Assembly (NCBI RefSeq): GCF_000934685.1
Contig: NZ_JYNQ01000001.1
Span: 3,137,501-3,201,500, forward strand
Length of the DNA stretch: 64,000 bases
Origin: Lacinutrix sp. Hel_I_90
GTDB taxonomy: Bacteria; Bacteroidota; Bacteroidia; Flavobacteriales; Flavobacteriaceae
Direction: 5' to 3'
Under the pieces are notes generated by a model that was not told where the DNA came from, ran no database searches, and saw nothing but the letters and a program-made list of their open reading frames with translations. A program made the translations under genes and the position numbers. The first letter of the stretch is position 1, and every line of letters starts with the position of its first letter. Shown one piece after another: positions 3,265 through 61,583 of the stretch.

Positions 3265-3593
3265 GATTATTTATTTGTTGTTACACTTCTTTTAACCTTA
3301 ATATTTAAATCATGAAAAGGTTAACAGTGATCTTTCATTTATTTTAAAAAAGAATAGTAAACACGTACAAAAAAATAGAGTTATTGATATAACGTGTTGT
3401 ATATAGTGGAAATAGTAATGTAATAAACAAAATATGGAAAAGAAAGACAGTGTAAGTAGTTCTCGACAAGGATAGAATTCCAAAAATTACAGAGCAGATG
3501 CTTGAAAGGCATTGAAGAAAGGGCTATTATAAAATAAAAAAAAAAGCTATTGAATGTTATCAATAGCTTTTAAAAGGCATATAATTTGATTTA
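3265..3593. other. 329-base gap between two minus-strand genes
   Basis: It holds the upstream region of the OmpA-family gene and, at 3542-3571, the terminator of the acyl-CoA dehydrogenase gene. A 60-codon minus-strand frame at 3381-3563 runs through that terminator stem and its composition looks random, so I do not call it a gene. I found no exact TAnnTTTG element next to the OmpA-family start. Confidence 0.5.
3542..3571 (-). terminator. Intrinsic terminator after acyl-CoA dehydrogenase
   Basis: A perfect 11-bp inverted repeat, AAAAGCTATTG and CAATAGCTTTT, encloses an 8-nt loop. On the minus strand it is followed by a long T-run (the A-rich stretch just left of 3542). It lies 23 bases past the stop of the acyl-CoA dehydrogenase gene. 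Confidence 0.85.
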
Positions 3594-4736: not shown

Positions 4737-4773
4737 AATATAATTAATTAGTTTATTTAATAAAATAAGAGTG

Positions 4774-4804
4774 CAAAGATAACTCTTAAATCGCTTTTTT
4801 TCAA
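4774..4804 (-). promoter_or_regulatory. Promoter of acyl-CoA dehydrogenase (-33 TTG, -7 TATCTTTG)
   Basis: On the minus strand the -7 box TATCTTTG (4781-4774) matches the Bacteroidota consensus TAnnTTTG. A TTG lies 20 nt upstream (4804-4802). The start codon follows after about 37 nt. Confidence 0.65.
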
Positions 4805-4828
4805 TAGATATTCTTATTTTTACTTTAT

Positions 4829-5893
4829 ATGATAAAAAATGAATACCATGTTATTGGTGTAATGTCTGGAACCTCATTAGACGGAATTGATTTAGCGCTT
4901 GTTACCTTCTCTTTCAATAATACATGGACCTTTAAAATTAACAGTGCCGAAACAGTACCGTATTCGGAAAAGTGGCAACTCGAATTAAAAACACTAATCA
5001 ATCACTCAAAAGAAGCGCTCTATTTGATTGATCAATACTATACTGATTATTTGGCTGATATTATTAATCAATTCATTTTAAAACATAGTATAAATACTAT
5101 TGATGCTGTATGCTCTCATGGCCATACAGCTTTGCACCAACCTGAACATCAATTAACCTATCAAATAGGAAACCTGCCACAGTTGTCTAGAAAGGTAAAA
5201 CAAACAGTAGTTTGTGATTTTAGAGTTCAAGATGTGGCTCTCGGGGGACAAGGCGCCCCGTTAGTTCCTATTGGTGATGAATTGTTGTTTGTAGATTATG
5301 ACTATTGCATTAACCTTGGTGGTTTCGCAAATGTTTCAACTAAAGAGCAATCAAAACGAATTGCTTTCGATATTTGCCCTTTAAATATAGTCTTAAACAA
5401 CTATGTTTCAGCCATGGGCCTCAAGTATGATGCAGAAGGCGTTCTAGCTTCCAAAGGTGAAATAAATACAGCATTATTAAACAAACTAAATAACCTAGAC
5501 TTTTATAAAAAGTCTTACCCAAAATCCCTAGGGTTAGAATGGGTGAATACTATAGTATTTCCTATAATTGACAGTTATAACCTCTCAGTAAAAGACATTC
5601 TAAGAACCTATGTCGAGCATATCGCTATTCAAATCTCTGAAGTTATAAACCAAAAACAAAAAGCTTCTGTTTTAGTTACTGGCGGCGGCGTTTTTAATTT
5701 GTTTTTGATCAATAGAATTAAGGAATTAAGCAAAAATCAAATTAGTATTCCTTCCAAAGAAATTATCGAATTCAAAGAAGCATTAATTTTTGCTTTCTTA
5801 GGCGTTTTGAAGTTGCGAGGAGAAAATAATTGCTTAAGCAGTGTAACTGGAGCGATAAAAGACCATTCTTCAGGTAAAATATTTCAGCTATAG
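4829..5893 (+). CDS. anmK: Anhydro-N-acetylmuramic acid kinase
   Basis: This 354-residue sugar kinase of the ASKHA fold phosphorylates and opens 1,6-anhydro-MurNAc to MurNAc-6-phosphate during cytoplasmic murein recycling. The N-terminal phosphate loop GVMSGTSLDGIDLAL (about residues 10-24) is diagnostic. Also present are SHGHTALHQPE, the region VALGGQGAPLVPIGDELLF, NLGGFANVS, and the C-terminal VTGGGVFN. Length and motif order are normal. The ATG at 4829 is used because MSGTSLDG follows only 11 residues later, as in homologues. No other recycling gene (nagZ, ampG, murQ) is in the window. It is divergent from the acyl-CoA dehydrogenase gene and separated from the next gene by 185 bases. Confidence 0.95.
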   Translation: MIKNEYHVIGVMSGTSLDGIDLALVTFSFNNTWTFKINSAETVPYSEKWQLELKTLINHSKEALYLIDQYYTDYLADIINQFILKHSINTIDAVCSHGHTALHQPEHQLTYQIGNLPQLSRKVKQTVVCDFRVQDVALGGQGAPLVPIGDELLFVDYDYCINLGGFANVSTKEQSKRIAFDICPLNIVLNNYVSAMGLKYDAEGVLASKGEINTALLNKLNNLDFYKKSYPKSLGLEWVNTIVFPIIDSYNLSVKDILRTYVEHIAIQISEVINQKQKASVLVTGGGVFNLFLINRIKELSKNQISIPSKEIIEFKEALIFAFLGVLKLRGENNCLSSVTGAIKDHSSGKIFQL

Positions 5894-5957
5894 CTATTAA
5901 TAAGCACAATTTAATAATAAAAAAGAACTTTACTTTTTAAAGCTATTTTTTGTTTTT

Positions 5958-5965
5958 TATATTTG
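5958..5965 (+). promoter_or_regulatory. -7 promoter box TATATTTG upstream of the Glu/Leu/Phe/Val dehydrogenase
   Basis: Exact match to TAnnTTTG. No TTG lies at the ideal -33 spacing. It would give an untranslated leader of about 105 nt before the start at 6079. Confidence 0.4.
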
Positions 5966-6078
5966 TTGAAACTAATCAAAAAAAACACCTTTCCAGATGA
6001 ATCAACTTTAGCTATTCTCCACATAAATTTCGAAAATTAATTTAAAAAAAAAGTTAAAGAAGATTCAATAAAATTTAG

Positions 6079-7305
6079 ATGAAAGAATTATTAAAAAAGT
6101 ACGAAAATAAAGAGCCGGAAATAATATTCAACTGGAAAGATCCCGAAACAGATGCAGAGGGTTGGACTGTTATCAACTCACTTCGTGGCGGTGCAGCAGG
6201 AGGAGGAACAAGAATGCGCAAAGGGCTCGATATTAATGAGGTTCTGTCACTTGCAAAAACGATGGAAGTTAAATTTACGGTATCTGGACCAGCAATTGGC
6301 GGCGCTAAATCGGGGATTAATTTTGACCCTAAGGACCCAAGGAAAAAAGGCGTTTTAGAACGCTGGTACAAAGCGGTTTCACCCTTGCTTAAAAGTTATT
6401 ACGGCACTGGAGGTGATTTAAATGTTGATGAAATACACGAAGTTATTCCCATTACAGAAGAATCTGGTGTTTGGCACCCGCAGGAAGGTGTTTTTAACGG
6501 ACACTTTAAACCTACTGAAGCTGATAAAATTAATCGGATTGGACAACTGCGTCAAGGCGTAATTAAAGTCATAGAGAATCCAGGCTTTTCTCCAGATGTG
6601 GTAAGGAAATATACCGTAGCAGATATGATCACAGGCTATGGTGTTGCCGAGGCAGTAAGGCATTATTATGAAATTTATGACGGCAGTGTCGTTGGAAAAC
6701 GTGCTGTGGTTCAGGGTTTTGGTAATGTGGGGTCAGCAGCAGCTTATTACTTGGCTCAAATGGGAGCTAAAGTGGTTGGTATTATTGATGTATCTGGCGG
6801 GGTTATAAATGAAAATGGATTTTCTTTTGAAGAAATAACTAATTTCTTTTTAACCAAAAACGGCAATACCTTAGCGACTGACAACATGATTCCGTTTGCT
6901 GAAATGAATGAACGAATTTGGTCATTGCAGACTGAAATTTTTGCACCTTGCGCGGCATCCCGTTTAATTACACAAAATCAAATTGATCAAATGATTTCTA
7001 CAGGATTAGAAGTCATTTCTTGTGGGGCAAATGTGCCATTTGCGGATAAAGAAATATTCTTTGGAAGCATAATGGAACATACTGATGAAAGAGTAAGCCT
7101 CATTCCAGATTTTATATCCAATTGCGGAATGGCAAGAGTCTTTGCTTATTTTATGGAACGCAAAGTACAGATGACGGATGAAGCGATTTTTAGCGATACC
7201 TCAAATATTATTAAAAAAGCAATTCAAAACGTTTACGATAAAAACCCTAATCCTACAGAATTAAGTAAAACAGCATTTGAAATTGCACTAACACAACTTG
7301 TATAA
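6079..7305 (+). CDS. Glu/Leu/Phe/Val family amino acid dehydrogenase
   Basis: This 408-residue NAD(P)-dependent oxidative deaminase interconverts an amino acid and its 2-oxo acid plus ammonia in the cytoplasm. The N-terminal ELFV domain holds GGAAGGGTRMRKG and the catalytic-lysine segment GPAIGGAKSGINFDP, then YYGTGGDLNVDE. The Rossmann domain has VVQGFGNVGSAAAYYLAQMG with a downstream Asp in GIIDVSG, and CAASRLI follows later. Substrate (Glu, Leu/Val or Phe) cannot be fixed by eye. It lies 3 bases upstream of nhaD and probably starts the run that continues to folC. Confidence 0.9.
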   Translation: MKELLKKYENKEPEIIFNWKDPETDAEGWTVINSLRGGAAGGGTRMRKGLDINEVLSLAKTMEVKFTVSGPAIGGAKSGINFDPKDPRKKGVLERWYKAVSPLLKSYYGTGGDLNVDEIHEVIPITEESGVWHPQEGVFNGHFKPTEADKINRIGQLRQGVIKVIENPGFSPDVVRKYTVADMITGYGVAEAVRHYYEIYDGSVVGKRAVVQGFGNVGSAAAYYLAQMGAKVVGIIDVSGGVINENGFSFEEITNFFLTKNGNTLATDNMIPFAEMNERIWSLQTEIFAPCAASRLITQNQIDQMISTGLEVISCGANVPFADKEIFFGSIMEHTDERVSLIPDFISNCGMARVFAYFMERKVQMTDEAIFSDTSNIIKKAIQNVYDKNPNPTELSKTAFEIALTQLV

Positions 7306-7308
7306 ACT

Positions 7309-8703
7309 ATGGAAGCAGTAATCATTCTCGTATTTGTCTTTGGCTATTTGGCAATTACTTTAGAACACAGTATAAAAATAGACAAATTAATACCTGCACT
7401 CGTAATGATGGCCATAAGTTGGGCACTTATTTCTTTGGGAATTGACTCGTTTCCAAATTGGTTTGACTCAGCAAAACATGCTTTAGTAGATAACTTTCCC
7501 GCTTTAGGACATGAAGAAAAGATGCATTTAATGGAGGAAACATTATTGCATCATTTAGGGAAGACCGCTGAGATTTTAGTGTTTCTATTAGGCGCCATGA
7601 CTATAGTAGAAATTATTGATTATTTTGATGGTTTTTCAACTATTAAAAACTTTATTAAGACTAAAAAGAAAAGTAAAATTTTATGGATTTTTGCTTTTCT
7701 TGCCTTTATACTATCTGCAATTATCGATAATTTAACAGCAACTATTGTACTAATTTCAATTCTACAAAAAATAGTAAAGGATAGAAATGTTCGTATTTGG
7801 TTTGCAGGTTTAATTATAATTGCAGCGAATGCAGGTGGGGCTTTTTCACCAATAGGCGATGTAACAACTACAATGCTTTGGATAGGTAATAAGGTTTCTA
7901 CAGGACATCTTTTTGGTTACTTGCTATTGCCTTCATTAGTATGTATGCTGTTGCCTACATTAATTGCTTCTTTTCTTCCTGCTTTTAAAGGAAATCTTGA
8001 TATGGATGATAGTGCTGTCGAAAAATCTAAAAGTCGTTTCAGTTCTACTATGTTATACTTAGGTCTGGGTGCTATTGTTTTTGTACCTGTATTTAAAGTG
8101 TTTACGCATTTACCACCTTACGTTGGTATGATGCTATCCCTAGGTGTTGTCGCTATTTTTGCAGAAATTTACAGTTCTAGAAAATTTAGTTTAACAGAAA
8201 TCGATGACGATGTTAGTGAGGCGCACGCCCATCACAGTCCAGTACACCATTCTTTATCTAAAATTGAACTACCAAGTATTTTGTTTTTCTTAGGAATATT
8301 AATGGCTGTAGCCGCTTTAGAATCTTTAGGCACATTATTTGGTTTCGCCTCTTCCCTACAAGAAAATGTACCTATGTTAGGTACAGAATTGCACCATTCA
8401 GGTGTATCAGATTTAGTGATTATTTTATTAGGAATTGGTTCTGCTGTGATTGATAATGTACCTCTGGTAGCAGCTAGTTTAGGAATGTTTTCAGAGCCTA
8501 TGGATAATGAGTTATGGCACTTCATCGCCTATTCGGCAGGAACAGGTGGTAGTATGTTAATTATTGGATCAGCTGCTGGAGTGGTTGCTATGGGAATGGA
8601 GAAAATTGATTTCTTCTGGTATCTAAAAAAGATTTCATGGTTAGCATTTATAGGTTTTATAGCAGGAACACTTGTTTTCTTTTTTACAAGAACTTTATTT
8701 TAA
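7309..8703 (+). CDS. nhaD: Na+/H+ antiporter NhaD
   Basis: This 464-residue inner-membrane protein has many hydrophobic segments (roughly 10-12 helices) and belongs to the NhaD branch of the ion transporter superfamily that also holds ArsB. Family landmarks include LGAMTIVEIIDYFDGF, the helix-breaking stretch SAIIDNLTATIVLISIL, NAGGAFSPIGDVTTTMLWI and, in the second half, GIGSAVIDNVPLVAA and AYSAGTGGSMLIIGSAAG. The two IDN repeats reflect the inverted-repeat fold. It exports Na+ or Li+ in exchange for protons, which fits a marine salt load. It follows the amino acid dehydrogenase by 3 bases and precedes exbB by 50 bases. A His-rich cytoplasmic loop (HAHHSPVHHS) lies near residue 310. Confidence 0.93.
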   Translation: MEAVIILVFVFGYLAITLEHSIKIDKLIPALVMMAISWALISLGIDSFPNWFDSAKHALVDNFPALGHEEKMHLMEETLLHHLGKTAEILVFLLGAMTIVEIIDYFDGFSTIKNFIKTKKKSKILWIFAFLAFILSAIIDNLTATIVLISILQKIVKDRNVRIWFAGLIIIAANAGGAFSPIGDVTTTMLWIGNKVSTGHLFGYLLLPSLVCMLLPTLIASFLPAFKGNLDMDDSAVEKSKSRFSSTMLYLGLGAIVFVPVFKVFTHLPPYVGMMLSLGVVAIFAEIYSSRKFSLTEIDDDVSEAHAHHSPVHHSLSKIELPSILFFLGILMAVAALESLGTLFGFASSLQENVPMLGTELHHSGVSDLVIILLGIGSAVIDNVPLVAASLGMFSEPMDNELWHFIAYSAGTGGSMLIIGSAAGVVAMGMEKIDFFWYLKKISWLAFIGFIAGTLVFFFTRTLF

Positions 8704-8753
8704 ACATACGCAATACAAAAAAGTAACGTTATACATTTAATAAACCCCAAGAT

Positions 8754-9443
8754 ATGATAAGTACATTTTTGCAAGATTCTGCACAAGGTGCAGAAGGAGA
8801 ATCGGTTAAAAAAACATTGTCCATTATAGAGTTAGTGACTACAGGTGGAACAGCAGGAATAATTATTATTACAATCTTAATAGTACTTATGATTGTTGCA
8901 ATTTATATCTATTTTGAAAGAATTCTCGCTATTAAAGAAGCTTCTAAAGTAGATGCTAATTTTATGAATCAAATTAGAGATTATGTCAGTAATGGTAAAA
9001 TAGATTCAGCTCAAAACCTTTGTTCTCAGTCTAATTCTCCGGTTTCAAGATTAATTAGTAAAGGCATTTCTAGAATTGGAAAACCACTGGAAGACATTAA
9101 TACTGCCCTTGAAAATGCAGGCCGTTTAGAAATATACAACCTGGAGAAAAATGTTAGTGTTTTAGCTACAATTTCAGGAGCTGCACCCATGATTGGATTC
9201 CTTGGAACAGTTATTGGAATGATACTCTCAATATTCGAAATTGCTAATTCAGGAGGCTCTATCGACATTAAAACTTTGGCAGATGGTTTGTATACTGCAA
9301 TGACAACAACCGTTGGCGGTTTAATTGTGGGTATTATTGCATACATCTCATACAACCACTTAGTCGTAAGAACAGATAAATTGGTGTATCAAATGGAAGC
9401 AAATTCTTTAGAATTTTTAGACCTATTAAATGAACCGAGCTAA
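8754..9443 (+). CDS. exbB: MotA/TolQ/ExbB proton channel family protein
   Basis: This 229-residue inner-membrane subunit of the TonB energising motor has three hydrophobic segments (about 34-58, 128-152, 170-196). The conserved motor region ISGAAPMIGFLGTVIGMI and the last helix TAMTTTVGGLIVGIIAY are typical of ExbB/TolQ. With ExbD it converts proton flow into conformational energy for TonB. Spacing to exbD is 10 bases and exbD is followed directly by tonB, so it serves outer-membrane TonB-dependent transporters rather than flagella. Confidence 0.93.
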   Translation: MISTFLQDSAQGAEGESVKKTLSIIELVTTGGTAGIIIITILIVLMIVAIYIYFERILAIKEASKVDANFMNQIRDYVSNGKIDSAQNLCSQSNSPVSRLISKGISRIGKPLEDINTALENAGRLEIYNLEKNVSVLATISGAAPMIGFLGTVIGMILSIFEIANSGGSIDIKTLADGLYTAMTTTVGGLIVGIIAYISYNHLVVRTDKLVYQMEANSLEFLDLLNEPS

Positions 9444-52628: not shown

Positions 52629-53020
52629 AAAGCAGTACGCATATTTGTCGCTAGAGTCTCAATAAATTTACTTATTGGACCTTTTATCATCATGGCCATC
52701 ATCGCATTAAATTCGCCTTCAAAATTTAATTGTACTTCGCTGGTATTGGCATCAATTTCTGTGATATTTCCAATCAAAGAAAAATCTATTTTGCCCCCAG
52801 CAGCTCCTAAAACAATTTTATTTGGTGGTATAGCTTCTTTCTTTTTAAGTACGATTTCTGGCATGCCTTTTAAAGCAAAAAGAAATTTTTCCTTGTCTAT
52901 AACTTCAAATTTACTAATGTTTTCGGGCATTAGAGATTCGAAATTTTCAATAGTATTTAAAAAATCGAAAGTTTCCTGAGCAGATTTTTGTAGTGTTACT
53001 TTTTGTGATTCTAAGTTCAT
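52625..53020 (-). CDS. SRPBCC (START-like) family protein
   Basis: This 131-residue polyketide-cyclase/START-like protein has a typical start VTLQKSAQETFDFLNTIENFESLMP and a C-terminal amphipathic helix, GPISKFIETLATNMRTAF. It probably binds a hydrophobic ligand. It stands 69 bases downstream of pyrE on the same strand and is likely transcribed with it. Function is unknown. Confidence 0.82.
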   Translation of the reverse strand: MNLESQKVTLQKSAQETFDFLNTIENFESLMPENISKFEVIDKEKFLFALKGMPEIVLKKKEAIPPNKIVLGAAGGKIDFSLIGNITEIDANTSEVQLNFEGEFNAMMAMMIKGPISKFIETLATNMRTAF

Positions 53021-53089
53021 TCTATATAGCTTATTAGTTGGTGTTTACTTGATTGTGTTGACTAATTTAAAACAATAGTATGGTCACAA

Positions 53090-53734
53090 TCAATTCGCAT
53101 GCCATGCGCCAGGATTGGCATTCCAATCGGCTAAAGTTTTTAATTGTTCTTGAGAAATATAATTCGCTTCTGCTGCTTCAAGAAGTAAGTTTTCGTAGTT
53201 ACTTAAAGTATTTAGTTCTATGTGTTCAGCTTCAAAATTTTGTTTGGCGATATCAAAATCATAGCTAAAGATGGCAAGCATTCCTTTTACATTCACATTT
53301 GCTTCTTTTAAAGCTCTAACCGCATTAAGACTGCTTTTTCCTGTGCTTATCAGGTCTTCAATAACAACTACATTTTGTCCGCTTTCAAGGAAACCTTCAA
53401 TTTGATTTTGTCTCCCATGACTTTTAGCTTCTGGTCTTACGTATACAAAGGGCAGGCCAAGATACTCCGCTACTAGCATGCCAATGCCTATTGCTCCTGT
53501 TGCTACACCTGCTATAACATCTGGTCTCCCGTAATGTTGTTCAATAAATTTACTCATTTCCTCACGTATATAATTTCGAATTAGAGGAAAAGAGAGTACA
53601 ATACGGTTGTCGCAGTAAATTGGAGATTTCCAACCTGAAGCCCATGTAAAAGGATCTTCCGGATTTAATTTAATTGCGTTTACTTGAAGTAAAACTTTTG
53701 CGGCTTGTCTGGCAATGTGTTTATCGAAAATCAT
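53090..53734 (-). CDS. pyrE: Orotate phosphoribosyltransferase
   Basis: This 214-residue enzyme attaches orotate to PRPP in pyrimidine synthesis. NPEDPFTWASGWKSPIYCDNR is near the N-terminus. The PRPP-binding motif VVVIEDLISTGKSSLNAV is at about 120-137. The start codon lies only five bases after the perfect -7 box at 53747-53740, so the message may be leaderless. Confidence 0.96.
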   Translation of the reverse strand: MIFDKHIARQAAKVLLQVNAIKLNPEDPFTWASGWKSPIYCDNRIVLSFPLIRNYIREEMSKFIEQHYGRPDVIAGVATGAIGIGMLVAEYLGLPFVYVRPEAKSHGRQNQIEGFLESGQNVVVIEDLISTGKSSLNAVRALKEANVNVKGMLAIFSYDFDIAKQNFEAEHIELNTLSNYENLLLEAAEANYISQEQLKTLADWNANPGAWHAN

Positions 53735-53739
53735 AGTTG

Positions 53740-53747
53740 CAAAAATA
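53740..53747 (-). promoter_or_regulatory. -7 promoter box TATTTTTG five bases before the pyrE start codon
   Basis: Exact TAnnTTTG match on the minus strand, followed by CAACT and the ATG. It would imply a leaderless or near-leaderless transcript. Confidence 0.5.
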
Positions 53748-53860
53748 ACAATAATTTCATTTTTAAGTATTATTTGATTGCATAAAAAAATATCTTTTTA
53801 AGATATAAGAAACTAAATCAAAAAATAATACTTTTACCAACACTAACTGTTCGACATACT

Positions 53861-54445
53861 ATGATGTATCGTATTTTTGTAAACGACAAGCCTATTATTT
53901 TAACAACGGAAGTTGAAAAAGAAACTGATTTTAAAAATTTTTTATTGAAGGGTGTTGATATGGAGCAAGTAATCAACGCTTTAAAGAAGAAAAAAATAAG
54001 GCATGTACGGTTAATTCATCATAATAAAGATACCATTTTAAAAAAGTTTCTAAAAAAGTTGCCTAATGTTATTGCTGGTGGCGGCAAAGTATATAATAAA
54101 AACAAGTCCGTTTTATTTATTTACAGAAATGATAAATGGGATCTACCTAAAGGAAAAGCTGAAGGAAAGGAAACTATAGAAAGAACAGCGATAAGAGAGG
54201 TTGAAGAAGAAACAGGAGTTAAAGGGTTGAAAATTGAAAAACCATTAGAGACCACTTATCATTTGTTTAGACGTAATGGTAAGCTTAAAATAAAAATCAC
54301 GTATTGGTTTGAAATGTCTACAGACTACGAGGGAACACTTTTGCCACAAGAGAATGAAGGGATTACAAAAGTAGAATGGCTAAATAAGCAAGACTCAGAA
54401 GACGCCTTAGAGAATTCTTATGCTAATATTAAGCTGTTGATTTAG
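53861..54445 (+). CDS. NUDIX hydrolase
   Basis: This 194-residue protein has a complete NUDIX box, with G98, E104 and R112-E113-x2-EE around GKAEGKETIERTAIREVEEETG. An N-terminal extension of about 65 residues with KKLPNVIAGGGKVYNKNKSVLFIYR leads into the NUDIX fold. It hydrolyses a nucleoside diphosphate linked to another moiety; substrate unknown. Start could be the second codon (M2). Confidence 0.92.
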   Translation: MMYRIFVNDKPIILTTEVEKETDFKNFLLKGVDMEQVINALKKKKIRHVRLIHHNKDTILKKFLKKLPNVIAGGGKVYNKNKSVLFIYRNDKWDLPKGKAEGKETIERTAIREVEEETGVKGLKIEKPLETTYHLFRRNGKLKIKITYWFEMSTDYEGTLLPQENEGITKVEWLNKQDSEDALENSYANIKLLI

Positions 54446-54530
54446 AAGGTTATTTATTAATCTATCTTATTTTTTTAAAATTAGCAGCCCCTTTTTTCTT
54501 AGCCATTAAGTAGGCTGATGAAAATAGTTT

Positions 54531-55220
54531 TTAGACTTTAACGGTATTGACTATGTCTTCAATAGCAGCATATAGGTCTTCTTTTATCTGATAATTCATC
54601 TTGTTTTTACTTGAAAACTGCTGATTGATTTCAATCTCAAGACCGCTATAGTTTTTTTCTGTTTGCTGCCTTAAATACGTGGTAAATCCATCGGCTTTTC
54701 CTAAGTATGGATAGTTAAAACGAACCAACCACTTTGGGTTAATAGTATGTATAGCTTTTTTTAGTTTCAAAGCAATCTGTTTTTCGTTTGGTTTAGAAGG
54801 ATCATAAAGAATACCAATATCACAGTGTCTTACCACATGGTTTAAAACGGGAGTGAACGAATGGATAGACAGGTGTAAAACGTGGCTGACCTTTATTAGC
54901 TTTTTTATTTCGTATGCTACAGTGTTTCTATACGTCAAATAGTAATCTTTAATAATCTTTTTCTTTGACTCACTCGTTAGTGAATTGGAGAATTCCGAAA
55001 ACAAAGACTTGTGGTGTAAGGAGCGGTTTAATTCTATTAACAGTCGGCTTGTTTCACTATAATTAGAATAGGCTGCCAATGGTTTTAAATAATTAAATAC
55101 ATCTAAAGCGCCTAGGTCATAACCTCTATGTGACTTTAGCGCTTCCTTGTTATTAAAAATGGCGGTATATTCTTCTGGGATATTGTTGCCGCCATGCTCA
55201 CAGGTTAATACAAGTTTCAT
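54531..55220 (-). CDS. N-formylglutamate amidohydrolase family protein
   Basis: This 229-residue protein of the N-formylglutamate amidohydrolase (FGase) superfamily starts with LTCEHGGNNIPEEY (the family metal-binding start SCEHxxxxxP). The middle motif LSIHSFTPVLN carries another metal-ligand His. It follows the GCS2 gene by one base and is probably translationally coupled. In comparable operons it is thought to hydrolyse an amide or peptide bond of the product made by the neighbouring ligases. No histidine-degradation genes are adjacent, which argues against the classical hut role. Confidence 0.85.
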   Translation of the reverse strand: MKLVLTCEHGGNNIPEEYTAIFNNKEALKSHRGYDLGALDVFNYLKPLAAYSNYSETSRLLIELNRSLHHKSLFSEFSNSLTSESKKKIIKDYYLTYRNTVAYEIKKLIKVSHVLHLSIHSFTPVLNHVVRHCDIGILYDPSKPNEKQIALKLKKAIHTINPKWLVRFNYPYLGKADGFTTYLRQQTEKNYSGLEIEINQQFSSKNKMNYQIKEDLYAAIEDIVNTVKV

Positions 55221-55221
55221 T

Positions 55222-56454
55222 TTATTTTTTCGGAATAAAAAGAGTGTTGCTTTCTAAGCAATCTGCTAATTGATTATAGATGATTCTAATGTTTTTTTCT
55301 GAAGAGTCTTCCTCTAGAGCAGTAAGAATTCTGGTCGATAATGTGCCGTGCTCGAGGATGATTTCAATCGCGTTTTGATAGTTGTCAGAGAGGTTGTCTT
55401 TTACCAGTTCATACAAGTGCTTCCAAAGATTTTTGACTGAAGTACCCGCGTTCATATTGAATAATTCCAGGTAATCAGTATTGTAAATATTATAATTCTC
55501 AGCATCTTTTATTGTAGCATTAAGAATTTGAAACAAGTCTTGTTTTAACCATTTCTTTTGGTTTTTCAAGGGCGCTAATTCACCGTTAACTAGTTTTTTC
55601 AAGACTTCAATAATCAATACGCAAATGGCAATGTCTGCTTTTGGGCACTCTTGAATATCAACTAATCTGATTTCAATGGCATTTCTGTCAAAACGTGCGA
55701 TAGCCCCTCGAGAATTTAAAAAATGATGATCTAAAATATTATTAGTATCGTACTTCTTAATGGCCTTATTAATAGGCTCAAAAATTGTCGCATAATAATC
55801 TACTTTACTAAAAACACGTTCAGGTATAACTAAACCAGTCATCTCTGGAATCTCTTTTTGATTGTTTTTGTAGTATTCCAGACGGGTGTCTTTAAAATCA
55901 GTAACGCGGCCTTCTAAAATTGGAGAACTGGCACATAAACCGGGCAATAGTGGTAAAATAATGCGAATAGCAGCATGTAGTTTTTCAAACTCTTTATCAT
56001 CGTAGAAGGGTAAATTTATATGTGTACTTTGCACATTACTCCAGCCATGACCTTTACAGTCAAAAATACGATTGTACAACTCGTACACTTCACTATAGCT
56101 GTGTTTCCAAAGCTGCGTGTCCCGTAATGGATTCATTAAAGGGTGACATGCCGTTGGTAATAATTTCGTGCTTAGGGGTTTTAAAAGACTATTTATTTCT
56201 AAGATGTTGTTATGAAAGTCTTCTGAAAGCGTCTCTAAATTCGCAGTTGGACCATTGGTTTTTATTTCAACAACATGAGCGACTAACTCATTACTCCAGG
56301 CAACCGTTCCATTATCAATATCTGAGGTTAATGTGCCATTTTTTGCTGTTAATAAGGTGTCAACGATAGGCGCAATTTTAAAAGAAGACGTATCAATAAG
56401 CATGTATTCCAATTCGATACCAAAAACTTCAAAAAGGTGATATTTTTTACCCAT
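55222..56454 (-). CDS. Glutamate-cysteine ligase family (GCS2/carboxylate-amine ligase) protein
   Basis: This 410-residue glutamine-synthetase-fold amidoligase has the N-terminal VFGIELEYMLID (metal-binding GxExE start), SNVQSTHINLPF and IEIRLVDIQECPKAD, which are typical of the GCS2 family. Such enzymes join glutamate or another carboxylate to an amine with ATP. It lies between the RimK-like and FGase genes with one-base gaps on both sides, so the three are surely one transcription unit. The substrate is not known. Confidence 0.87.
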   Translation of the reverse strand: MGKKYHLFEVFGIELEYMLIDTSSFKIAPIVDTLLTAKNGTLTSDIDNGTVAWSNELVAHVVEIKTNGPTANLETLSEDFHNNILEINSLLKPLSTKLLPTACHPLMNPLRDTQLWKHSYSEVYELYNRIFDCKGHGWSNVQSTHINLPFYDDKEFEKLHAAIRIILPLLPGLCASSPILEGRVTDFKDTRLEYYKNNQKEIPEMTGLVIPERVFSKVDYYATIFEPINKAIKKYDTNNILDHHFLNSRGAIARFDRNAIEIRLVDIQECPKADIAICVLIIEVLKKLVNGELAPLKNQKKWLKQDLFQILNATIKDAENYNIYNTDYLELFNMNAGTSVKNLWKHLYELVKDNLSDNYQNAIEIILEHGTLSTRILTALEEDSSEKNIRIIYNQLADCLESNTLFIPKK

Positions 56455-56455
56455 A

Positions 56456-57901
56456 TTATTCTAATCGTTTTTTTAATGCTGAAAGCACCTTAGTATACAC
56501 CAAATCACCATAATGAGCATCTTCTACGCCAAAATCTATATTTGGATTGTCATTAATTTCAATAACCATCGGTTTGTTGTCTACTACTTTTATATCAATG
56601 CCATATAAACCTTTGCCCATTAGTTTTGCCGATTTTAAAGCCATGTGTATAACCTCTTTTGGTACGTCTTCAATAGGTAAACACTCTGCATCTCCATCTT
56701 GATCATTCTTTTTCTTGGCATTCCAATTATAGATTTGCCAATGTCCCTTTGCCATATAATACTTGCAGGCAAAAAAGGGTTTGTCGTCTATAATACCAAT
56801 CCGCCAATCATAATCTGATGGGCAAAATTCTTGTGCAATAATAAGATCAGACTCTTTTAGCATTTCAGAGACTAGCGTATTGTATTCTTTTTCTGTTTTT
56901 GCCTTTTTTACACCAAAAGAAAAGGTAGAATCAGGAGCTTTTAAAACGCAAGGCAAACCAACTTGTTTCATTACAAATTCGCGGTTATCTTTATGTACAA
57001 TAAGGGTTTTTGGGGTTGCGATATGCGCATTGTTTAAAGCTTCGGCCATAAAGACTTTATTACAGCATTTTAAAATAGCATCAGGGTAGTCAATAATCGC
57101 AAGACCTTCTTGTTGTGCTTTACGCGCAAAGGCATACGCTTCATTATTAACTTCTGTGCTTTGGCGAATAAACAAGGCGTCAAAAGAGGATAAGCGACTT
57201 AAATCTTTAGGCTCAATAATTTCAGCATAAATATTCATCTTTTCGGCAATATCTATAAACTTTTTTAAAGCTTTGGTATTACTTGGAGGTGCAGGATCGT
57301 TTGGATTAACTAAAATAGCCAGATCAAAATCAGAAGTTGTTAGCTTAGGTGTGTCGTAACGTTTTTTAGAGAAATATTGGTTTGCAAAGACATGTACACT
57401 TTCTAAATGCTCGTTCGGGATTTCAGATTCTGAAATTGCTCTAATACTTTGTATGTTCCATTTGGTGTTATGATAAAACTTGACCCGTAGAAAAGGGACT
57501 TGAAAATGCTTGTAAAACAAGCTGCTTAGTGCTTTGTATTTTTGAGCTACATTTTGACCAAAATAAATACTTAATGTAAACTCTCTAGACTTAATGTTTT
57601 TTAAACTCTGCTGAATCACATCATCAAACTCATCTGAAACTATTTTAACCAATTTCAGTGTCTTTAAATCTACTATATTTCTAACCGTTGGAATGGCTAA
57701 ATGTCCTCTAGCTTCAGCTAAAAGTGAGACATAGTAGCCCTTTGATTGATAACTGTAATCTTTACAAAGATTAAATATTCTAGCTTTCTTTAAAAGTGAA
57801 AACTGAGGATCGGTAAGGTAGTCTTGCGAAGAAATCACCTTGATATTCTCTATCGAAAAATGCCATTTTTCAGGCTGATTGACAACTATGTATTTATTCA
57901 T
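56456..57901 (-). CDS. RimK-like ATP-grasp ligase with RLAN N-terminal domain
   Basis: This 481-residue protein has an N-terminal RimK-like RLAN domain (about 1-190, with KARIFNLCKDYSYQSKGYYVSLLAEARGH) and a C-terminal ATP-grasp. CVLKAPDSTFSFGVKKA is the ATP-binding loop; SDLIIAQEFCPSDYDWRIGIID and VIEINDNPNIDFGVED give the Mg-binding end. ATP-grasp enzymes of this type add amino acids, often glutamate, to a carboxylate. It is the first gene of the three-gene amidoligase operon and has a -7 box at 57933-57940. Confidence 0.9.
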   Translation of the reverse strand: MNKYIVVNQPEKWHFSIENIKVISSQDYLTDPQFSLLKKARIFNLCKDYSYQSKGYYVSLLAEARGHLAIPTVRNIVDLKTLKLVKIVSDEFDDVIQQSLKNIKSREFTLSIYFGQNVAQKYKALSSLFYKHFQVPFLRVKFYHNTKWNIQSIRAISESEIPNEHLESVHVFANQYFSKKRYDTPKLTTSDFDLAILVNPNDPAPPSNTKALKKFIDIAEKMNIYAEIIEPKDLSRLSSFDALFIRQSTEVNNEAYAFARKAQQEGLAIIDYPDAILKCCNKVFMAEALNNAHIATPKTLIVHKDNREFVMKQVGLPCVLKAPDSTFSFGVKKAKTEKEYNTLVSEMLKESDLIIAQEFCPSDYDWRIGIIDDKPFFACKYYMAKGHWQIYNWNAKKKNDQDGDAECLPIEDVPKEVIHMALKSAKLMGKGLYGIDIKVVDNKPMVIEINDNPNIDFGVEDAHYGDLVYTKVLSALKKRLE

Positions 57902-57932
57902 TTAAGGTCTAAGCCGTGGTGTAAATTTCAAA

Positions 57933-57940
57933 CAAAACTA
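57933..57940 (-). promoter_or_regulatory. -7 promoter box TAGTTTTG of the amidoligase operon
   Basis: Exact TAnnTTTG match on the minus strand, about 31 nt from the RimK-like start. It indicates that this operon can be transcribed independently of the upstream M14 gene. Confidence 0.45.
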
Positions 57941-58091
57941 TAGTATTTTTTAATTGGTTTCACATAGCACTGAAAATATTTTTAATGGCATATATTATAA
58001 TGGTTTGCTCGTGTTCTATCCTAATAAAATACTAAAAAAAACAGTCGTGTTTATTTTAAATTTGTAAGTAAAAAAAATAAAAAGAATACGC

Positions 58092-59822
58092 TTATTCTAT
58101 TCTGTAAACAGGATATTGTAAATGTGCTTTCTCATAGTTTTCACTTTCTTTATGTAGCCACTCTAATTGTGCATACCAATTGTTCGCAAAGTCAGGGTTG
58201 TAAGATTTTTTAATATTAAAAGCAATTTGTAGTTTAGGATTTTCAGCTAATAAGGTTTTAGCTTTATCTTCCCAGACATAAGGTGAAAAGCCTTCTTTTT
58301 GCTGCAAAATGGTATCGAAAAAATTCCAATTAAAAAAGGAATCTGGTGCTTGAGGTTCTAAGGTTTCTAGTAAATAACGGAGGCCGTTTTGGTTTGTGTT
58401 AATAATATAATCCCCTTTTTTAAAGGCAATTTGTTCTTGAGTCGTTTTTACATTGGTATTATAATGAAAATAGTGACCTTCATAGGCTTGCTTACGCGTG
58501 TCGTAGTTTTCAATCTTGTAGGATGTAACGGGAAGTGTAGAATCTTTTTCTAATACTTTAAATTGGACACGGTTTAATTCTAATAACGCCATAACATGCC
58601 ACCAACCTTGAGGAATTACATACGCGCTTGGTATGCTTACTTCTAAAGTAGGTTTAAAGTAATTTTGATAAGTTACTGGTTTAACAAACGGTTTTGAAGT
58701 GTCGTACTTTAAACGTTTTGCTCCGGTAAGGTCACTATCAATTGTGTTGCCTTCAAAGCCTTTGAAATTTAAAGTTGTAGCCTTAGTTGTGTCTATTTCC
58801 CATTGTAACGGATAGTTATTTTTTGCTATTAGCGTCTTATTAAAATCCTGTCTTAGTGTTTTAATTTTTTCGTGGTCTTCTTCAATAATAACTAACATGC
58901 TTTTCATAAGTTCGTAAGTGCCTTCTACACGTAGTTTATATGGTTTTAGCATGTGTGTTTCTACCATCATGCCTAAGGTGTTAAATAAAGTGGTGTAGCC
59001 AGTAGAGTATCTTGGCGAATCCATAAATTGTGAAAAATCTTTTTCTGGAACACTATTAAAAACGTTTACATAAGGGGTAATGTCCCACTGTTTGGCTTCT
59101 AATTTTTGCTCCAGTTTGGGCATCATTTCAGTGTGTAAATAGTGTCCGAGTTCCCCTCCCAATTTATTATGCTGTGTAAATAAGTGAGTCAATGTATATT
59201 GGTAGTCTGCACCATTACTCACGTGATTATCTATAAACACATCAGGTTGTACGGTATGAAAGATTTTAGCAAAGGTTTTGGCATTTTTTGTGTCACTCTT
59301 TATAAAATCGCGATTTAAATCATAATTACGGGCGTTGCCTCTAAACCCATATTCTTTTGGTCCATTTTGATTGGTGCGTGTCCCGGTGTTACGGTTTAAA
59401 CTACCACCAATATTATAAATAGGAATAGTCACTATAACCGTATGTTTTGGCATCTTTATTTTGCCTTGTATAATATCTCTGAACAATAGCATGGTGGCAT
59501 CAATACCGTCACTTTCTCCTGGGTGAATACCATTGTTAATTAAAAGAATACGTTTATTTTTTCTAATGTCTGAAAAATCAAAATTAGATTCTGGATTTAA
59601 GGTGACGATATGTAGTGGTTTTCCTGAGTCGGTTTCGCCTATTGAATCGATTGAAATTTCAGAATAATAGTCTGCTAAATTTTTATAATATTGAATCGTT
59701 TCGAAGTAGGTAGCGGTTTCTGTCCCTTCTGAGGTTTCAAAAACGGTAGTAAAATCATATTCTTTTTTTGAATGACAGCTAAAACAAAAAATAATTAATG
59801 CGGCCAGTGCTATTTTTTTCAT
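58092..59822 (-). CDS. M14 family zinc carboxypeptidase lipoprotein
   Basis: This 576-residue protein has a lipoprotein-like signal (IFCFSC, Cys16). The M14 domain contains the zinc pair in NNGIHPGESDGIDA (H100, E103), the RNYDLNRDF segment, FIDNHVSNGADYQYT with the third ligand, and the catalytic-Glu region LGMMVETHMLKPYKLRVEGTYE. A C-terminal beta-rich domain of about 200 residues follows. It probably trims peptides or glutamate tags in the periplasm. It lies upstream of the amidoligase operon on the same strand, with a 190-base gap. A minus-strand -7 box (TATATTTG, 59859-59852) precedes it. Confidence 0.88.
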   Translation of the reverse strand: MKKIALAALIIFCFSCHSKKEYDFTTVFETSEGTETATYFETIQYYKNLADYYSEISIDSIGETDSGKPLHIVTLNPESNFDFSDIRKNKRILLINNGIHPGESDGIDATMLLFRDIIQGKIKMPKHTVIVTIPIYNIGGSLNRNTGTRTNQNGPKEYGFRGNARNYDLNRDFIKSDTKNAKTFAKIFHTVQPDVFIDNHVSNGADYQYTLTHLFTQHNKLGGELGHYLHTEMMPKLEQKLEAKQWDITPYVNVFNSVPEKDFSQFMDSPRYSTGYTTLFNTLGMMVETHMLKPYKLRVEGTYELMKSMLVIIEEDHEKIKTLRQDFNKTLIAKNNYPLQWEIDTTKATTLNFKGFEGNTIDSDLTGAKRLKYDTSKPFVKPVTYQNYFKPTLEVSIPSAYVIPQGWWHVMALLELNRVQFKVLEKDSTLPVTSYKIENYDTRKQAYEGHYFHYNTNVKTTQEQIAFKKGDYIINTNQNGLRYLLETLEPQAPDSFFNWNFFDTILQQKEGFSPYVWEDKAKTLLAENPKLQIAFNIKKSYNPDFANNWYAQLEWLHKESENYEKAHLQYPVYRIE

Positions 59823-59851
59823 TTCAAACGATTTAGTGAATTTATGTGAAA

Positions 59852-59859
59852 CAAATATA
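59852..59859 (-). promoter_or_regulatory. -7 promoter box TATATTTG of the M14 peptidase gene
   Basis: Exact TAnnTTTG match, about 29 nt before the start codon. It is part of a divergent promoter pair with the SulP gene. Confidence 0.5.
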
Positions 59860-59870
59860 GTAATTGCGTC

Positions 59871-59901
59871 TTTGCTAAGATAACAATTAAACGTACTTTT
59901 G
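59871..59901 (+). promoter_or_regulatory. Promoter of the SulP transporter gene (-33 TTTG, -7 TACTTTTG)
   Basis: TTTG at 59871-59874 and TACTTTTG at 59894-59901 are separated by 19 nt, the ideal Bacteroidota spacing. The start codon follows after 20 nt. Confidence 0.7.
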
Positions 59902-59921
59902 CCGCTTTAAAAATAGAGGTT

Positions 59922-61583
59922 ATGACAGCATATTTTAGAAAACAAAGAGCCACTGCAAAAAACGATGTTTTAGCGGGGATTACGGTGTCTTTAGCGATGA
60001 TACCAGAAGTAGTTGCTTTTGCTTTTGTAGCACAAATAGATCCATTAGTAGCGCTTTCTGGCGCCTTTATTATTGGTTTGATCACTGCTATTTTTGGTGG
60101 CCGTCCAGGATTAATTTCTGGAGCCGCAGGAGCAGTAGCTGTTATATTTGTAACCATGATAGCTGAAGGTCATACGAAAGGCATGTTGTTTGACCAACCT
60201 ATAGATAATATGGGGTATTTTTATCTTTTGGCTTGTGTAATATTAATGGGGGTTATTCAAATTGGTGCTGGCGTTTTTAAACTCGGACGATTTGTTCGTT
60301 TGATTCCACATTCTGTAATGATGGGGTTTGTTAATGGTTTAGCGATTGTCATTTTTTGGGCGCAAGTAAAAATGTTTACACATAAAAAGGTCGCCGTTAG
60401 TAAAGATGGTGTAAAAGAATATATAAGTACTTATATGCAAGGCGAAGAATTGTATATGATGATTGGTCTTGTTGCGTTAACCATGTTGATTATTTGGTTA
60501 TTACCTAAGTTGACTAAAAAGATTCCAGCCTCTTTAACGGCTATTTTAATCACTACCTTTATCGTGGTGTTTTCTGGAATAGAAGTAAATACAGTAGGTT
60601 CTTACATTATTGAAGGTGGTGGAACGGGTTTGAAAGGAGAGTTTCCAACACCAAATATGGAGTTATGGCAAAATTTACCTTTTAATATGGATACCTTAAC
60701 ATTTATATTACCATTTGCCTTTCTGGCTGCTTCGGTTGGCTTAATTGAATCTTTAATGACGTTAAACCTGGTAGATGAGCTTACCGAAACTAGAGGAAAT
60801 GGAAATAAAGAATGTATCGCTCAAGGTGCAGGAAATATAATGAGTGGCTTATTTGGAGGAACAGGAGGTTGTGGTATGATTGGTCAAACCGTTATTAATA
60901 TAAATGCTGGCGGACGCGGCCGTTTATCTGGTATCATGACAGCTTTAACTTTATTAACTTTTATTTTATTTACAGATAAATTAATAGAGCAAGTACCAAT
61001 TGCGGCATTAGTAGGGGTAATGTTTATGATGGTTATTGAAACCTTTGCATGGTCTAGTTTTAGAATCATGCGTAAAATTCCAAAAACAGATGCCTTCGTA
61101 TTGGTGATCGTAAGTGCGGTAACTGTAATTTATGATTTGGCGATTGCCGTTTTTGTAGGTGTTATTATTTCGGCATTAGTTTTTGCTTGGGAAAATGCTA
61201 AGAAAATTAGAGCAAGAAAACGCGTAAAGGAAGATGGTACCAAAGTTTATGAAATTTGGGGACCTTTATTCTTTGGAAGTATTACTGCGTTTAACGATAA
61301 ATTCGACGCAAAAAATGATCCAGATAGGGTAGAAATTGATTTTGTAGAATCGCGGGTAAGTGATCATTCTGCATTAGAAGCTATTTTTAATCTTGTTGAA
61401 AAATATGAAGCCGAAGGCAAAAGCATTAAATTAAAACATTTAAGCGAAGATTGTAAAGAGTTACTTTATAAGGCAAGTCCGAAATTTAGAGAAGTCATCA
61501 TTGAAGATATCGATGACCCGCGATACCACCTAGCAGCAGATCCAGAACGGTTTACCAAATCGCTTTCAGAATATAAACTGTAA
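59922..61583 (+). CDS. SulP family anion transporter with STAS domain
   Basis: This 553-residue inner-membrane transporter has about 10-12 helices in the SulP core: LAGITVSLAMIPEVVAFAFVAQIDPLVAL at the N-terminus, FGGRPGLISGAAGAVAVIF, and ECIAQGAGNIMSGLFGGTGGCGMIGQTVIN. A C-terminal STAS domain occupies about 450-553, with YEIWGPLFFGSITAFNDKF. Sulfate, bicarbonate or another anion is likely; the substrate cannot be read. The promoter at 59871-59901 is canonical. Confidence 0.92.
   Translation: MTAYFRKQRATAKNDVLAGITVSLAMIPEVVAFAFVAQIDPLVALSGAFIIGLITAIFGGRPGLISGAAGAVAVIFVTMIAEGHTKGMLFDQPIDNMGYFYLLACVILMGVIQIGAGVFKLGRFVRLIPHSVMMGFVNGLAIVIFWAQVKMFTHKKVAVSKDGVKEYISTYMQGEELYMMIGLVALTMLIIWLLPKLTKKIPASLTAILITTFIVVFSGIEVNTVGSYIIEGGGTGLKGEFPTPNMELWQNLPFNMDTLTFILPFAFLAASVGLIESLMTLNLVDELTETRGNGNKECIAQGAGNIMSGLFGGTGGCGMIGQTVININAGGRGRLSGIMTALTLLTFILFTDKLIEQVPIAALVGVMFMMVIETFAWSSFRIMRKIPKTDAFVLVIVSAVTVIYDLAIAVFVGVIISALVFAWENAKKIRARKRVKEDGTKVYEIWGPLFFGSITAFNDKFDAKNDPDRVEIDFVESRVSDHSALEAIFNLVEKYEAEGKSIKLKHLSEDCKELLYKASPKFREVIIEDIDDPRYHLAADPERFTKSLSEYKL

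What the first reader, a model, noticed from the sequence alone, without database searches (positions are those of the whole stretch)
54531..57901. Tightly coupled RimK-like ATP-grasp, GCS2 and N-formylglutamate-amidohydrolase operon of unknown product
Three minus-strand genes are separated by one base each: an ATP-grasp ligase with an RLAN domain, a GCS2 glutamine-synthetase-fold ligase, and an FGase-superfamily amidohydrolase. Two unrelated ATP-dependent amide-bond formers plus an amide hydrolase form a synthesis-and-trim logic that has been noticed in comparative genomics of amidoligases, but no product is established as far as I know. No hut, glutathione or ribosomal S6 context is nearby. 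Inference: the trio makes a small gamma-glutamyl-type metabolite or modifies a protein or peptide carboxylate.
Basis: partly seen in the sequence, partly recalled or inferred. Interest (0 to 1): 0.75.

Follow-up and report, generated by a model that had tools for sequence, protein, structure and literature searches.

The report
Conserved write-and-erase glutamyl ligase operon
Three back-to-back genes in a Bacteroidota genome encode two unrelated ligases and one hydrolase that appear to build and take apart the same glutamate-containing amide; the set is widely conserved and its product is still unknown.

Summary
Three minus-strand genes, one base apart, encode an RLAN-RimK ATP-grasp ligase, a GCS2 ligase and an FGase-family hydrolase. 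The trio is kept in the nearest Flavobacteriaceae and, in the same order, in Legionella adelaidensis (41-45% identity).

In 77 Bacteroidota genomes with RLAN (73 with readable partners), RLAN-RimK has one second acyl-transferring partner: an adjacent GCS2 (55) or a GNAT acetyltransferase (18; 17 fused), never both. A papain-like C39 peptidase sits just upstream in 49 of 51 GCS2 loci outside the window's family. C39 and FGase occur together or singly.

The order peptidase > ATP-grasp > deacylase recurs in two other cassettes of this genome. One is RimB-RimK-AspA, whose RimK/RimB pair is a published write/erase glutamylation pair.

Best reading: a ligate-cap-release module making and recycling an N-capped glutamyl conjugate, more likely a small peptide than a protein tag. 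No substrate or product is shown. The proteins fall below the curated models for S6 ligase, glutamate-cysteine ligase and N-formylglutamate deformylase. Limits: partner exclusivity may reflect one evolutionary switch, two of five plasmid-borne RLAN loci have no such partner, and the association was, as I recall, noted in 2009.

The parts
56456..57901 (-). RLAN-RimK ATP-grasp ligase, 481 aa (RLAN domain residues 26-168; RimK-like part residues 192-481)
55222..56454 (-). GCS2-family carboxylate-amine ligase, 410 aa, no curated subfamily reached
54531..55220 (-). FGase-superfamily hydrolase, 229 aa
   Evidence: Pfam FGase 65.6 bits; HutG deformylase model 14.6 bits against cut-off 278.75; nearest solved structure by sequence 2odf, E 7e-10. 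E8, H9, D35, R59, N65, R66, H116, H120 are invariant in 109 of 109 and E195, E197 in 108 of 109.

Best explanation
A ligate-cap-release module. Step 1 (inferred): RLAN-RimK activates a carboxylate with ATP and joins it to the amine of an amino acid, probably L-glutamate. Step 2 (inferred): GCS2 activates a glutamate gamma-carboxylate with ATP and places a gamma-glutamyl cap on an amine of the same molecule, the job that GNAT does with acetyl in sister modules. The product would be a small N-capped glutamyl peptide, comparable in logic to N-acetylaspartylglutamate or N-acetylglutaminylglutamine amide. Step 3 (inferred): FGase here, or the C39-like cysteine peptidase in relatives, hydrolyses an amide of the product and returns glutamate, so the pool can be built up and drawn down. 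Shown: gene content, order, conservation, partner exchange and conserved residues. Not shown: any substrate, product or reaction order.
For: (1) Linkage: the RLAN>GCS2 gap is within 20 bp or overlapping in 121 of 136 loci, GCS2>FGase in 99 of 109, C39>RLAN in 42 of 49. (2) Exchange: of 77 Bacteroidota RLAN genomes, 55 have GCS2, 18 have GNAT (17 in one ORF with RLAN-RimK, 1 as a GNAT-C39 fusion), 0 have both. The 4 with neither are 3 contig ends and 1 short contig. Both partners are acyl-amine formers, which fits a cap. (3) Hydrolases: of 49 GCS2 loci with both flanks readable, 28 have C39 and FGase, 15 C39 only, 4 FGase only, 2 neither. The 4 FGase-only genomes have no match to this type of C39 anywhere; 8 of 9 C39-only genomes tested have no FGase match anywhere. 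(4) Layout parallel: in this genome a RimB-like protease, S6-type RimK and an AspA-like deacylase, and separately a MATCAP peptidase, a GSH-synthetase-like ATP-grasp and an AspA-like deacylase, stand in the same order. The RimB-RimK pair is adjacent in 14 of 15 loci fetched from other RLAN genomes, and AspA follows in 12 of those 14; the 15th locus held no RimK. RimB removing glutamates that RimK adds is published (PMC11957791, abstract and passages). (5) Three RimK residues contacting bound glutamate (R64, R189, N262 in PMC10092738 section 3.3) align with R246, R367, N450 here. (6) Beyond the module no gene cluster reaches more than 10 of 77 loci, and the 12 largest small-ORF clusters each stay within one family, so no dedicated target or precursor is seen.
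Against: No activity data. Partner exclusivity is a Bacteroidota result: of 5 plasmid-borne RLAN loci, 1 has the trio, 2 a GNAT-C39 fusion, and 2 (Pseudomonas aeruginosa L003, Aeromonas caviae L006) have none of these partners on the same strand nearby. The exclusivity may also be one event: the tree with all GNAT rows as one clade was even 4.4 log units better than the freely found one (p-AU 0.605), so the 73 loci are not 73 independent cases. The 17 GNAT fusions have no linked C39 or FGase; the C39 query found nothing in the 12 such genomes tested, and FGase was absent from 14 of 15 tested, so an erase step is not shown for every form. The C39 query is narrow: it also missed the DUF3335-type C39 that G155 does have. 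GCS2-family genes can exist elsewhere in GNAT-type genomes (one strong, G223; weak hits in ORFs of about 650-740 aa in others). R189 and N262 equivalents are general ATP-grasp residues (recalled), so point 5 is weak; S68 is not kept (E250 here). The GNAT of the Azospirillum locus passes the RimI (protein N-terminal acetyltransferase) model, which favours a protein target. The profiles of FGase and AspA do not match, so the layout parallel rests on a shared superfamily that I recall. The MATCAP cassette was seen only in this genome.
Confidence: 0.4

Rival explanations
1. Reversible modification of a protein or peptide: the two ligases add glutamyl groups to a protein terminus or side chain, and FGase/C39 remove them, as RimK and RimB do on ribosomal protein S6.
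Confidence: 0.3
2. Free poly-alpha-glutamate or a related polymer is made by RLAN-RimK from a gamma-glutamyl primer and broken down by FGase.
For: RimK itself makes free poly-alpha-glutamate, stimulated by RimB (PMC11957791 passages); RLAN-RimK has the RimK fold.
Against: The RimK residue S68 contacting the second glutamate is not kept (E250 here). FGase is related to single-residue deacylases rather than endopeptidases (family knowledge, recalled). Residues S7, R8 and S14 fall outside the alignment and were not compared.
Confidence: 0.12
3. Glutathione or gamma-glutamylcysteine synthesis with local turnover.
For: GCS2 family and fold; the genome has no match to the other glutamate-cysteine ligase family PF04262 and has one glutathione-synthetase-like ATP-grasp gene (407 bits against cut-off 408).
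Against: GCS2 scores 38.8 bits against cut-off 249.05 for cyanobacterial-type glutamate-cysteine ligase. The GSH-synthetase-like gene is coupled to MATCAP and AspA-like genes, not to this trio. In the other 19 of 20 RLAN genomes searched the best PF02955 hit is weak (E no better than 6e-23) or absent.
Confidence: 0.06
4. Ribosomally made peptide (graspetide-like) maturation, with C39 as leader peptidase.
For: ATP-grasp plus a C39-family peptidase fits RiPP clusters in general (PMC8939145 passages).
Against: 1,696 small ORFs within 1.2 kb of the module were compared in 78 loci; the 12 largest clusters each stay within one family. No other gene, transporters included, is found in more than 10 of 77 loci.
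Confidence: 0.04
5. Histidine-catabolism remnant: FGase is HutG and the ligases are chance neighbours.
For: FGase Pfam family.
Against: HutG model 14.6 bits against cut-off 278.75; the same linkage is seen in several families and in Legionella adelaidensis.
Confidence: 0.02

Closest known systems
RimB-RimK (RimABK) S6 glutamylation module of Pseudomonas and the RimB-RimK-AspA cassette of Bacteroidota
   Same: ATP-grasp RimK-fold ligase with a peptidase gene directly upstream and, in Bacteroidota, an AspA-like deacylase directly downstream in 12 of 14; published write/erase of glutamates
   Different: RLAN-RimK has an extra N-terminal RLAN domain and scores 31.1 bits against cut-off 331 for S6 ligase. 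It adds GCS2 or GNAT. Its peptidase is C39-like, not retropepsin-like. S6-type RimK is a separate gene in the same genome.
N-acetylglutaminylglutamine amide (NAGGN) system (Ngg, GNAT plus ATP-grasp in one protein; recalled) and N-acetylaspartylglutamate synthesis (GNAT NAT8L plus RIMKLA/B; recalled)
   Same: Acyl cap on an amine plus RimK-like amide ligation giving an N-capped dipeptide; the GNAT-RLAN-RimK fusions share this domain pairing
   Different: GNAT-RLAN-RimK L126 is not matched by NAGGN synthetase TIGR03103 at E 1e-4; the window module uses GCS2 instead of GNAT
YbdK-type GCS2 carboxylate-amine ligases
   Different: Only 49 bits against cut-off 176.4 for the YbdK family; adjacent to RLAN-RimK in 80 of 80 nearest relatives
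RimK/GCS2/N-formylglutamate-amidohydrolase neighbourhoods predicted by Iyer et al. 2009 (Mol Biosyst 5:1636)
   Same: As I recall, that paper already listed such associations as predicted peptide or metabolite pathways
   Different: The paper is not held; I saw only its entry in reference lists, so how much of the GNAT/C39 exchange it describes is unknown to me

Membership tests
RimK S6 glutamate ligase (NF007764) | Score above the curated cut-off of 331 bits | tested here: not met
   31.1 bits; another gene of the genome scores 388.9
RimK family alpha-L-glutamate ligase (TIGR00768) | Score above the curated cut-off of 143.4 bits | tested here: not met
RLAN-domain RimK-like ATP-grasp proteins (PF14401 plus ATP-grasp) | RLAN domain followed by a RimK-like ATP-grasp domain | tested here: met
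   162.8 bits against cut-off 25; RimK 37.3 bits against 21
Glutamate-cysteine ligase / YbdK (TIGR02048, TIGR02050, NF010039) | Score above the curated cut-offs 249.05, 176.4, 371 | tested here: not met
   38.8, 49, 57.9 bits
GCS2 superfamily | Pfam cut-off and fold | tested here: met
N-formylglutamate deformylase HutG (TIGR02017) | Score above the curated cut-off of 278.75 bits and hut context | tested here: not met
   14.6 bits; no hut gene recognised in the flanks read by me
FGase superfamily (PF05013) | Pfam cut-off | tested here: met
   65.6 bits against 28.9
NAGGN synthetase (TIGR03103) | Score above the curated cut-off of 569 bits | tested here: not met
   Not listed at E 1e-4 for the GNAT-RLAN-RimK fusion L126; 36 bits for the Azospirillum GNAT-C39 protein. 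For the window protein it is not among the best 25 of 33 families shown.
Pup ligase/depupylase system (PafA/Dop) | A Pup substrate gene and closer similarity to PafA/Dop than to other GCS-type ligases | tested here: inconclusive
Graspetide (RiPP) cluster | Conserved precursor peptide ORF beside the ATP-grasp gene | tested here: not met
   The 12 largest small-ORF clusters each stay within one family; smaller clusters were not printed
Anti-phage defence systems (PADLOC-DB) | Any match of the module proteins | tested here: not met
   0 families for 4 proteins at E 0.1
Any of the above by activity | Reaction catalysed | not testable with these tools
   Needs purified enzymes

The most novel reading that the evidence does not exclude
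Bacteroidota carry at least three parallel write/erase glutamylation cassettes, all ordered peptidase > ATP-grasp ligase > deacylase: RimB-RimK-AspA, MATCAP-GSHS-AspA (seen here in this genome only) and C39-RLAN-RimK-(GCS2)-FGase. The RLAN cassette makes a new class of N-capped glutamyl conjugate whose cap is gamma-glutamyl (GCS2) in some lineages and acetyl (GNAT) in others.
Probability: 0.3. Interest if true: 0.75.

Novelty: new variant of a known kind. Interest (0 to 1): 0.55.

Why it matters
The module is common (RLAN over the cut-off in 43 of 395 sampled Bacteroidota genomes), appears self-contained and has no known product. The exchange of GCS2 for GNAT, and of C39 for FGase, narrows the reaction to cap, ligate and release, which makes it directly testable in a few assays. 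The shared layout with the RimB-RimK cassette suggests that reversible glutamyl ligation may be a recurring regulatory or storage theme in this phylum.

Tried and rejected
Glutathione context: rejected as the main reading, because the GSH-synthetase-like gene belongs to another cassette and is weak or absent in the other 19 of 20 RLAN genomes searched. S6 modification: rejected, because the genome has its own S6-type rimK. Defence: no PADLOC match. RiPP: no small ORF cluster crossing families among the 12 largest. RNA element: no Rfam match in 53000-60500. Bacteroidota-type promoter pattern TTTG-N17-21-TANNTTTG (recalled consensus): 4 in the window against 4.4 expected, none upstream of the trio. 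Sigma-70-like sites 23 against 15.4 +/- 3.8 expected and 0 terminator-like sites against 2.2 expected in 54300-58300, not informative. Independent switches between GCS2 and GNAT: parsimony gives 3 and 2 changes, but one clade is not rejected (p-AU 0.605, held-together tree 4.4 log units better), so I do not claim repeated switching. The upstream gene 58092-59822 as operon member: 190 bp away and kept mainly in near relatives, so not included. FGase-AspA homology by profile: no match, inconclusive. The RLAN domain fold could not be judged: model pLDDT is low there, and the PDB rows cover 188-481. GCS2 profile against PDB sequences: nothing at E 0.01; GCS2 profile against E. coli YbdK: hhalign probability 60%, E 9e-5, over 276 columns. 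Phage collection: ATP-grasp matches only, covering at most 47% of the query. GCS2 in plasmids: only the Legionella adelaidensis record. RLAN-RimK in plasmids: 48 records with a match, 11 of them covering 80% or more of the query, five of which I opened.

Literature: searches returned no paper; two returned one each, whose passages do not bear on the trio; of 61 (9 papers), 62 (590) and 89 (160) I saw only the listed ones. Most subscription papers are not held. So 'no held paper on the trio' means these searches only.

Rows dropped before counts: G370 (fragment with stops, below cut-off) was never fetched; L136, L006 and L219 were left out of the second tree. The first tree used 77 Bacteroidota loci, 15 of the 80 GCS2-seeded loci and 5 plasmid loci. 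The flank-readable set of 49 is drawn from the 55 GCS2 loci.
Full report
What is there. The three ORFs lie on the minus strand at 56456-57901, 55222-56454 and 54531-55220, with exactly one base between neighbours. Pfam gives RLAN plus RimK-type ATP-grasp, GCS2 and FGase, each above its curated cut-off. None reaches a listed NCBIfam cut-off: S6 ligase 31.1 of 331 bits, RimK family 70.5 of 143.4, YbdK family 49 of 176.4, cyanobacterial-type glutamate-cysteine ligase 38.8 of 249.05, HutG 14.6 of 278.75 (for the RLAN protein the best 25 of 33 families were shown). The genome has a single match each to RLAN, GCS2 and FGase, and all three are here. The GC content of the stretch (32-35%) does not stand out from its flanks.

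Conservation. A scan of genome contigs with the GCS2 pair (window and Legionella adelaidensis) found 369 relatives, of which the best 80 were kept. All 80 have RLAN-RimK adjacent; 76 of 80 have FGase, 3 of the misses being at contig ends and one (Brumimicrobium, L066) a real absence beside the genes. These are near relatives, mostly Flavobacteriaceae. The order RLAN-RimK, GCS2, FGase is also kept in Legionella adelaidensis at 45, 43 and 41% identity.

Survey. RLAN was found over the cut-off in 43 of 395 genomes sampled across the phylum, 50 of 128 in the order of G108, 9 of 164 in the order of G031 and 52 of 195 in the class of G085; these sets overlap. The 77 distinct RLAN genomes (the fragmentary G370 left out) were read with flanks and labelled with profiles built here. 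GCS2 is present beside RLAN in 55, GNAT in 18 and both in 0. Of the 4 with neither, 3 end at a contig edge (L187, L207, L219) and one (L217) is a short contig whose RLAN groups with the Pseudomonas row. In 17 of the 18 GNAT cases the GNAT domain lies in one ORF with RLAN-RimK; in one (L136) a GNAT-C39 fusion is adjacent. Of 5 plasmid-borne RLAN loci, Legionella adelaidensis has the trio, Azospirillum and Tistrella have a GNAT-C39 fusion (DUF3335 by Pfam for Azospirillum; by my profiles for Tistrella), and Pseudomonas aeruginosa (L003) and Aeromonas caviae (L006) have none of these partners on the same strand. So 'always one partner' holds for the Bacteroidota set, not for all RLAN proteins.

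How far exclusivity goes. If GCS2 and GNAT fell independently among 73 loci, zero overlap would have probability about 2e-17, but the loci are related. The tree needs only 3 or 2 changes, and the tree with all GNAT rows as one clade was 4.4 log units better than the freely found one (p-AU 0.605). I therefore claim exclusivity of partners, not repeated replacement. At genome level the statement is weaker: G223, a GNAT type, has a separate full-length GCS2 gene elsewhere, and most of the GNAT genomes searched have weak GCS2 hits in ORFs of about 650-740 aa, as does a GCS2-type genome.

A fourth gene. Directly upstream of RLAN-RimK in 49 of 51 GCS2 loci outside the window's family lies a gene of about 240 aa; two of them were scanned and match the C39-like cysteine-peptidase family. 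Residues C18, H174, D192 and Q12 (numbering of L118) are invariant in 51 of 51. Of 49 GCS2 loci with both flanks readable, 28 have C39 and FGase, 15 C39 only, 4 FGase only (the window's family) and 2 neither. The FGase-only genomes have no match to this C39 type (4 of 4), and 8 of 9 C39-only genomes tested have no FGase (G146 has one elsewhere). So the two hydrolases look like alternative or joint erasers. The GNAT fusions usually have neither: no C39 match in 12 of 12 tested, no FGase in 14 of 15 tested, the remaining one (G085) having a weak unlinked match. That limits the generality of the erase step. The C39 query was narrow: it did not find the DUF3335-type C39 known to be in G155.

Parallel cassettes. 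Looking for glutathione and S6 genes elsewhere in the genome uncovered two more cassettes of the same order. L222: RimB-like protease (PF05618), S6-type RimK (388.9 of 331 bits), AspA-like deacylase. L221: MATCAP/QEGLA peptidase, GSH-synthetase-like ATP-grasp two bases later, AspA-like deacylase. Around RimK-type hits in 15 other RLAN genomes, RimB-RimK was adjacent in 14 and AspA followed in 12 of the 14; the 15th locus (L238) held no RimK. The MATCAP cassette was not surveyed in other genomes. RimB removing glutamates that RimK adds is published (PMC11957791, abstract and passages). By analogy, the C39 and FGase enzymes of the RLAN cassette probably undo what RLAN-RimK and GCS2 do. Profile comparison did not connect FGase with AspA; their shared metallopeptidase-like superfamily is recalled.

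Nothing else is seen fixed to the module: no further gene cluster reaches more than 10 of 77 loci, the 12 largest small-ORF clusters each stay within one family, and there is no Rfam element and no defence-family match. This argues for a self-contained pathway on common substrates rather than a RiPP or a dedicated target.

Interpretation. The simplest scheme is cap, ligate, release: GCS2 (gamma-glutamyl) or GNAT (acetyl) acylates an amine, RLAN-RimK makes a second amide with glutamate or a similar amino acid, and FGase and/or C39 hydrolyse. That is the logic of NAGGN and NAAG synthesis (recalled) with a different capping enzyme. A protein or peptide target is the main rival, supported by the RimB-RimK parallel and the RimI-like GNAT of L005 (87.4 of 86.4 bits). 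I put 0.4 on the small-conjugate scheme and 0.3 on the protein scheme.

Novelty. Neighbourhoods of RimK, GCS2 and N-formylglutamate amidohydrolase were, as I recall, predicted by Iyer et al. in 2009. The paper is not held here; I saw only its entry in reference lists. My searches of the held library showed no paper on the trio (in 89 only 10 of 160 papers were listed). The partner table (GCS2 against GNAT, C39 against FGase) and the same-order cassettes are what this work adds, with the caution that I could not check them against the 2009 paper.

Noticed in passing
L222 (window genome C1:1981500-1992000), locus 3960-6307: RimB-like protease, S6-type RimK and AspA-like deacylase in a row; RimB-RimK is adjacent in 14 of 15 other loci examined and AspA follows in 12 of those 14. 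The role of the AspA-like gene beside RimK is unknown to me.
   Followed up: partly
L221 (window genome C1:1446500-1457500), locus 3144-7042: MATCAP/QEGLA-type peptidase, glutathione-synthetase-like ATP-grasp (two bases apart) and AspA-like deacylase: a further ligase-plus-two-hydrolases cassette.
   Followed up: partly
L066 (Brumimicrobium glaciale contig), 6559-9227: RLAN-RimK of a Crocinitomicaceae genome groups with Winogradskyella rows, and no FGase lies beside it: probable horizontal transfer or contamination.
   Followed up: no
L003 (Pseudomonas aeruginosa plasmid) and L006 (Aeromonas caviae record): RLAN-RimK genes with no GCS2, GNAT or C39 partner on the same strand nearby: solo forms whose partners, if any, are unlinked.
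   Followed up: no
   Followed up: no
   Followed up: no
GNAT-type genomes, e.g. G187:C6:579460-580173: Weak GCS2-family hits (about 20-30 bits) in ORFs of about 650-740 aa, also present in GCS2-type genome G108: perhaps a separate, larger GCS2-like family.
   Followed up: no
window 58092-59822 (-): 576-aa protein upstream of the trio with no Pfam match over cut-off and a weak MpaA-like match (E 0.22), which I read as M14-like; it is kept near the trio in many relatives, perhaps only by synteny.
   Followed up: partly
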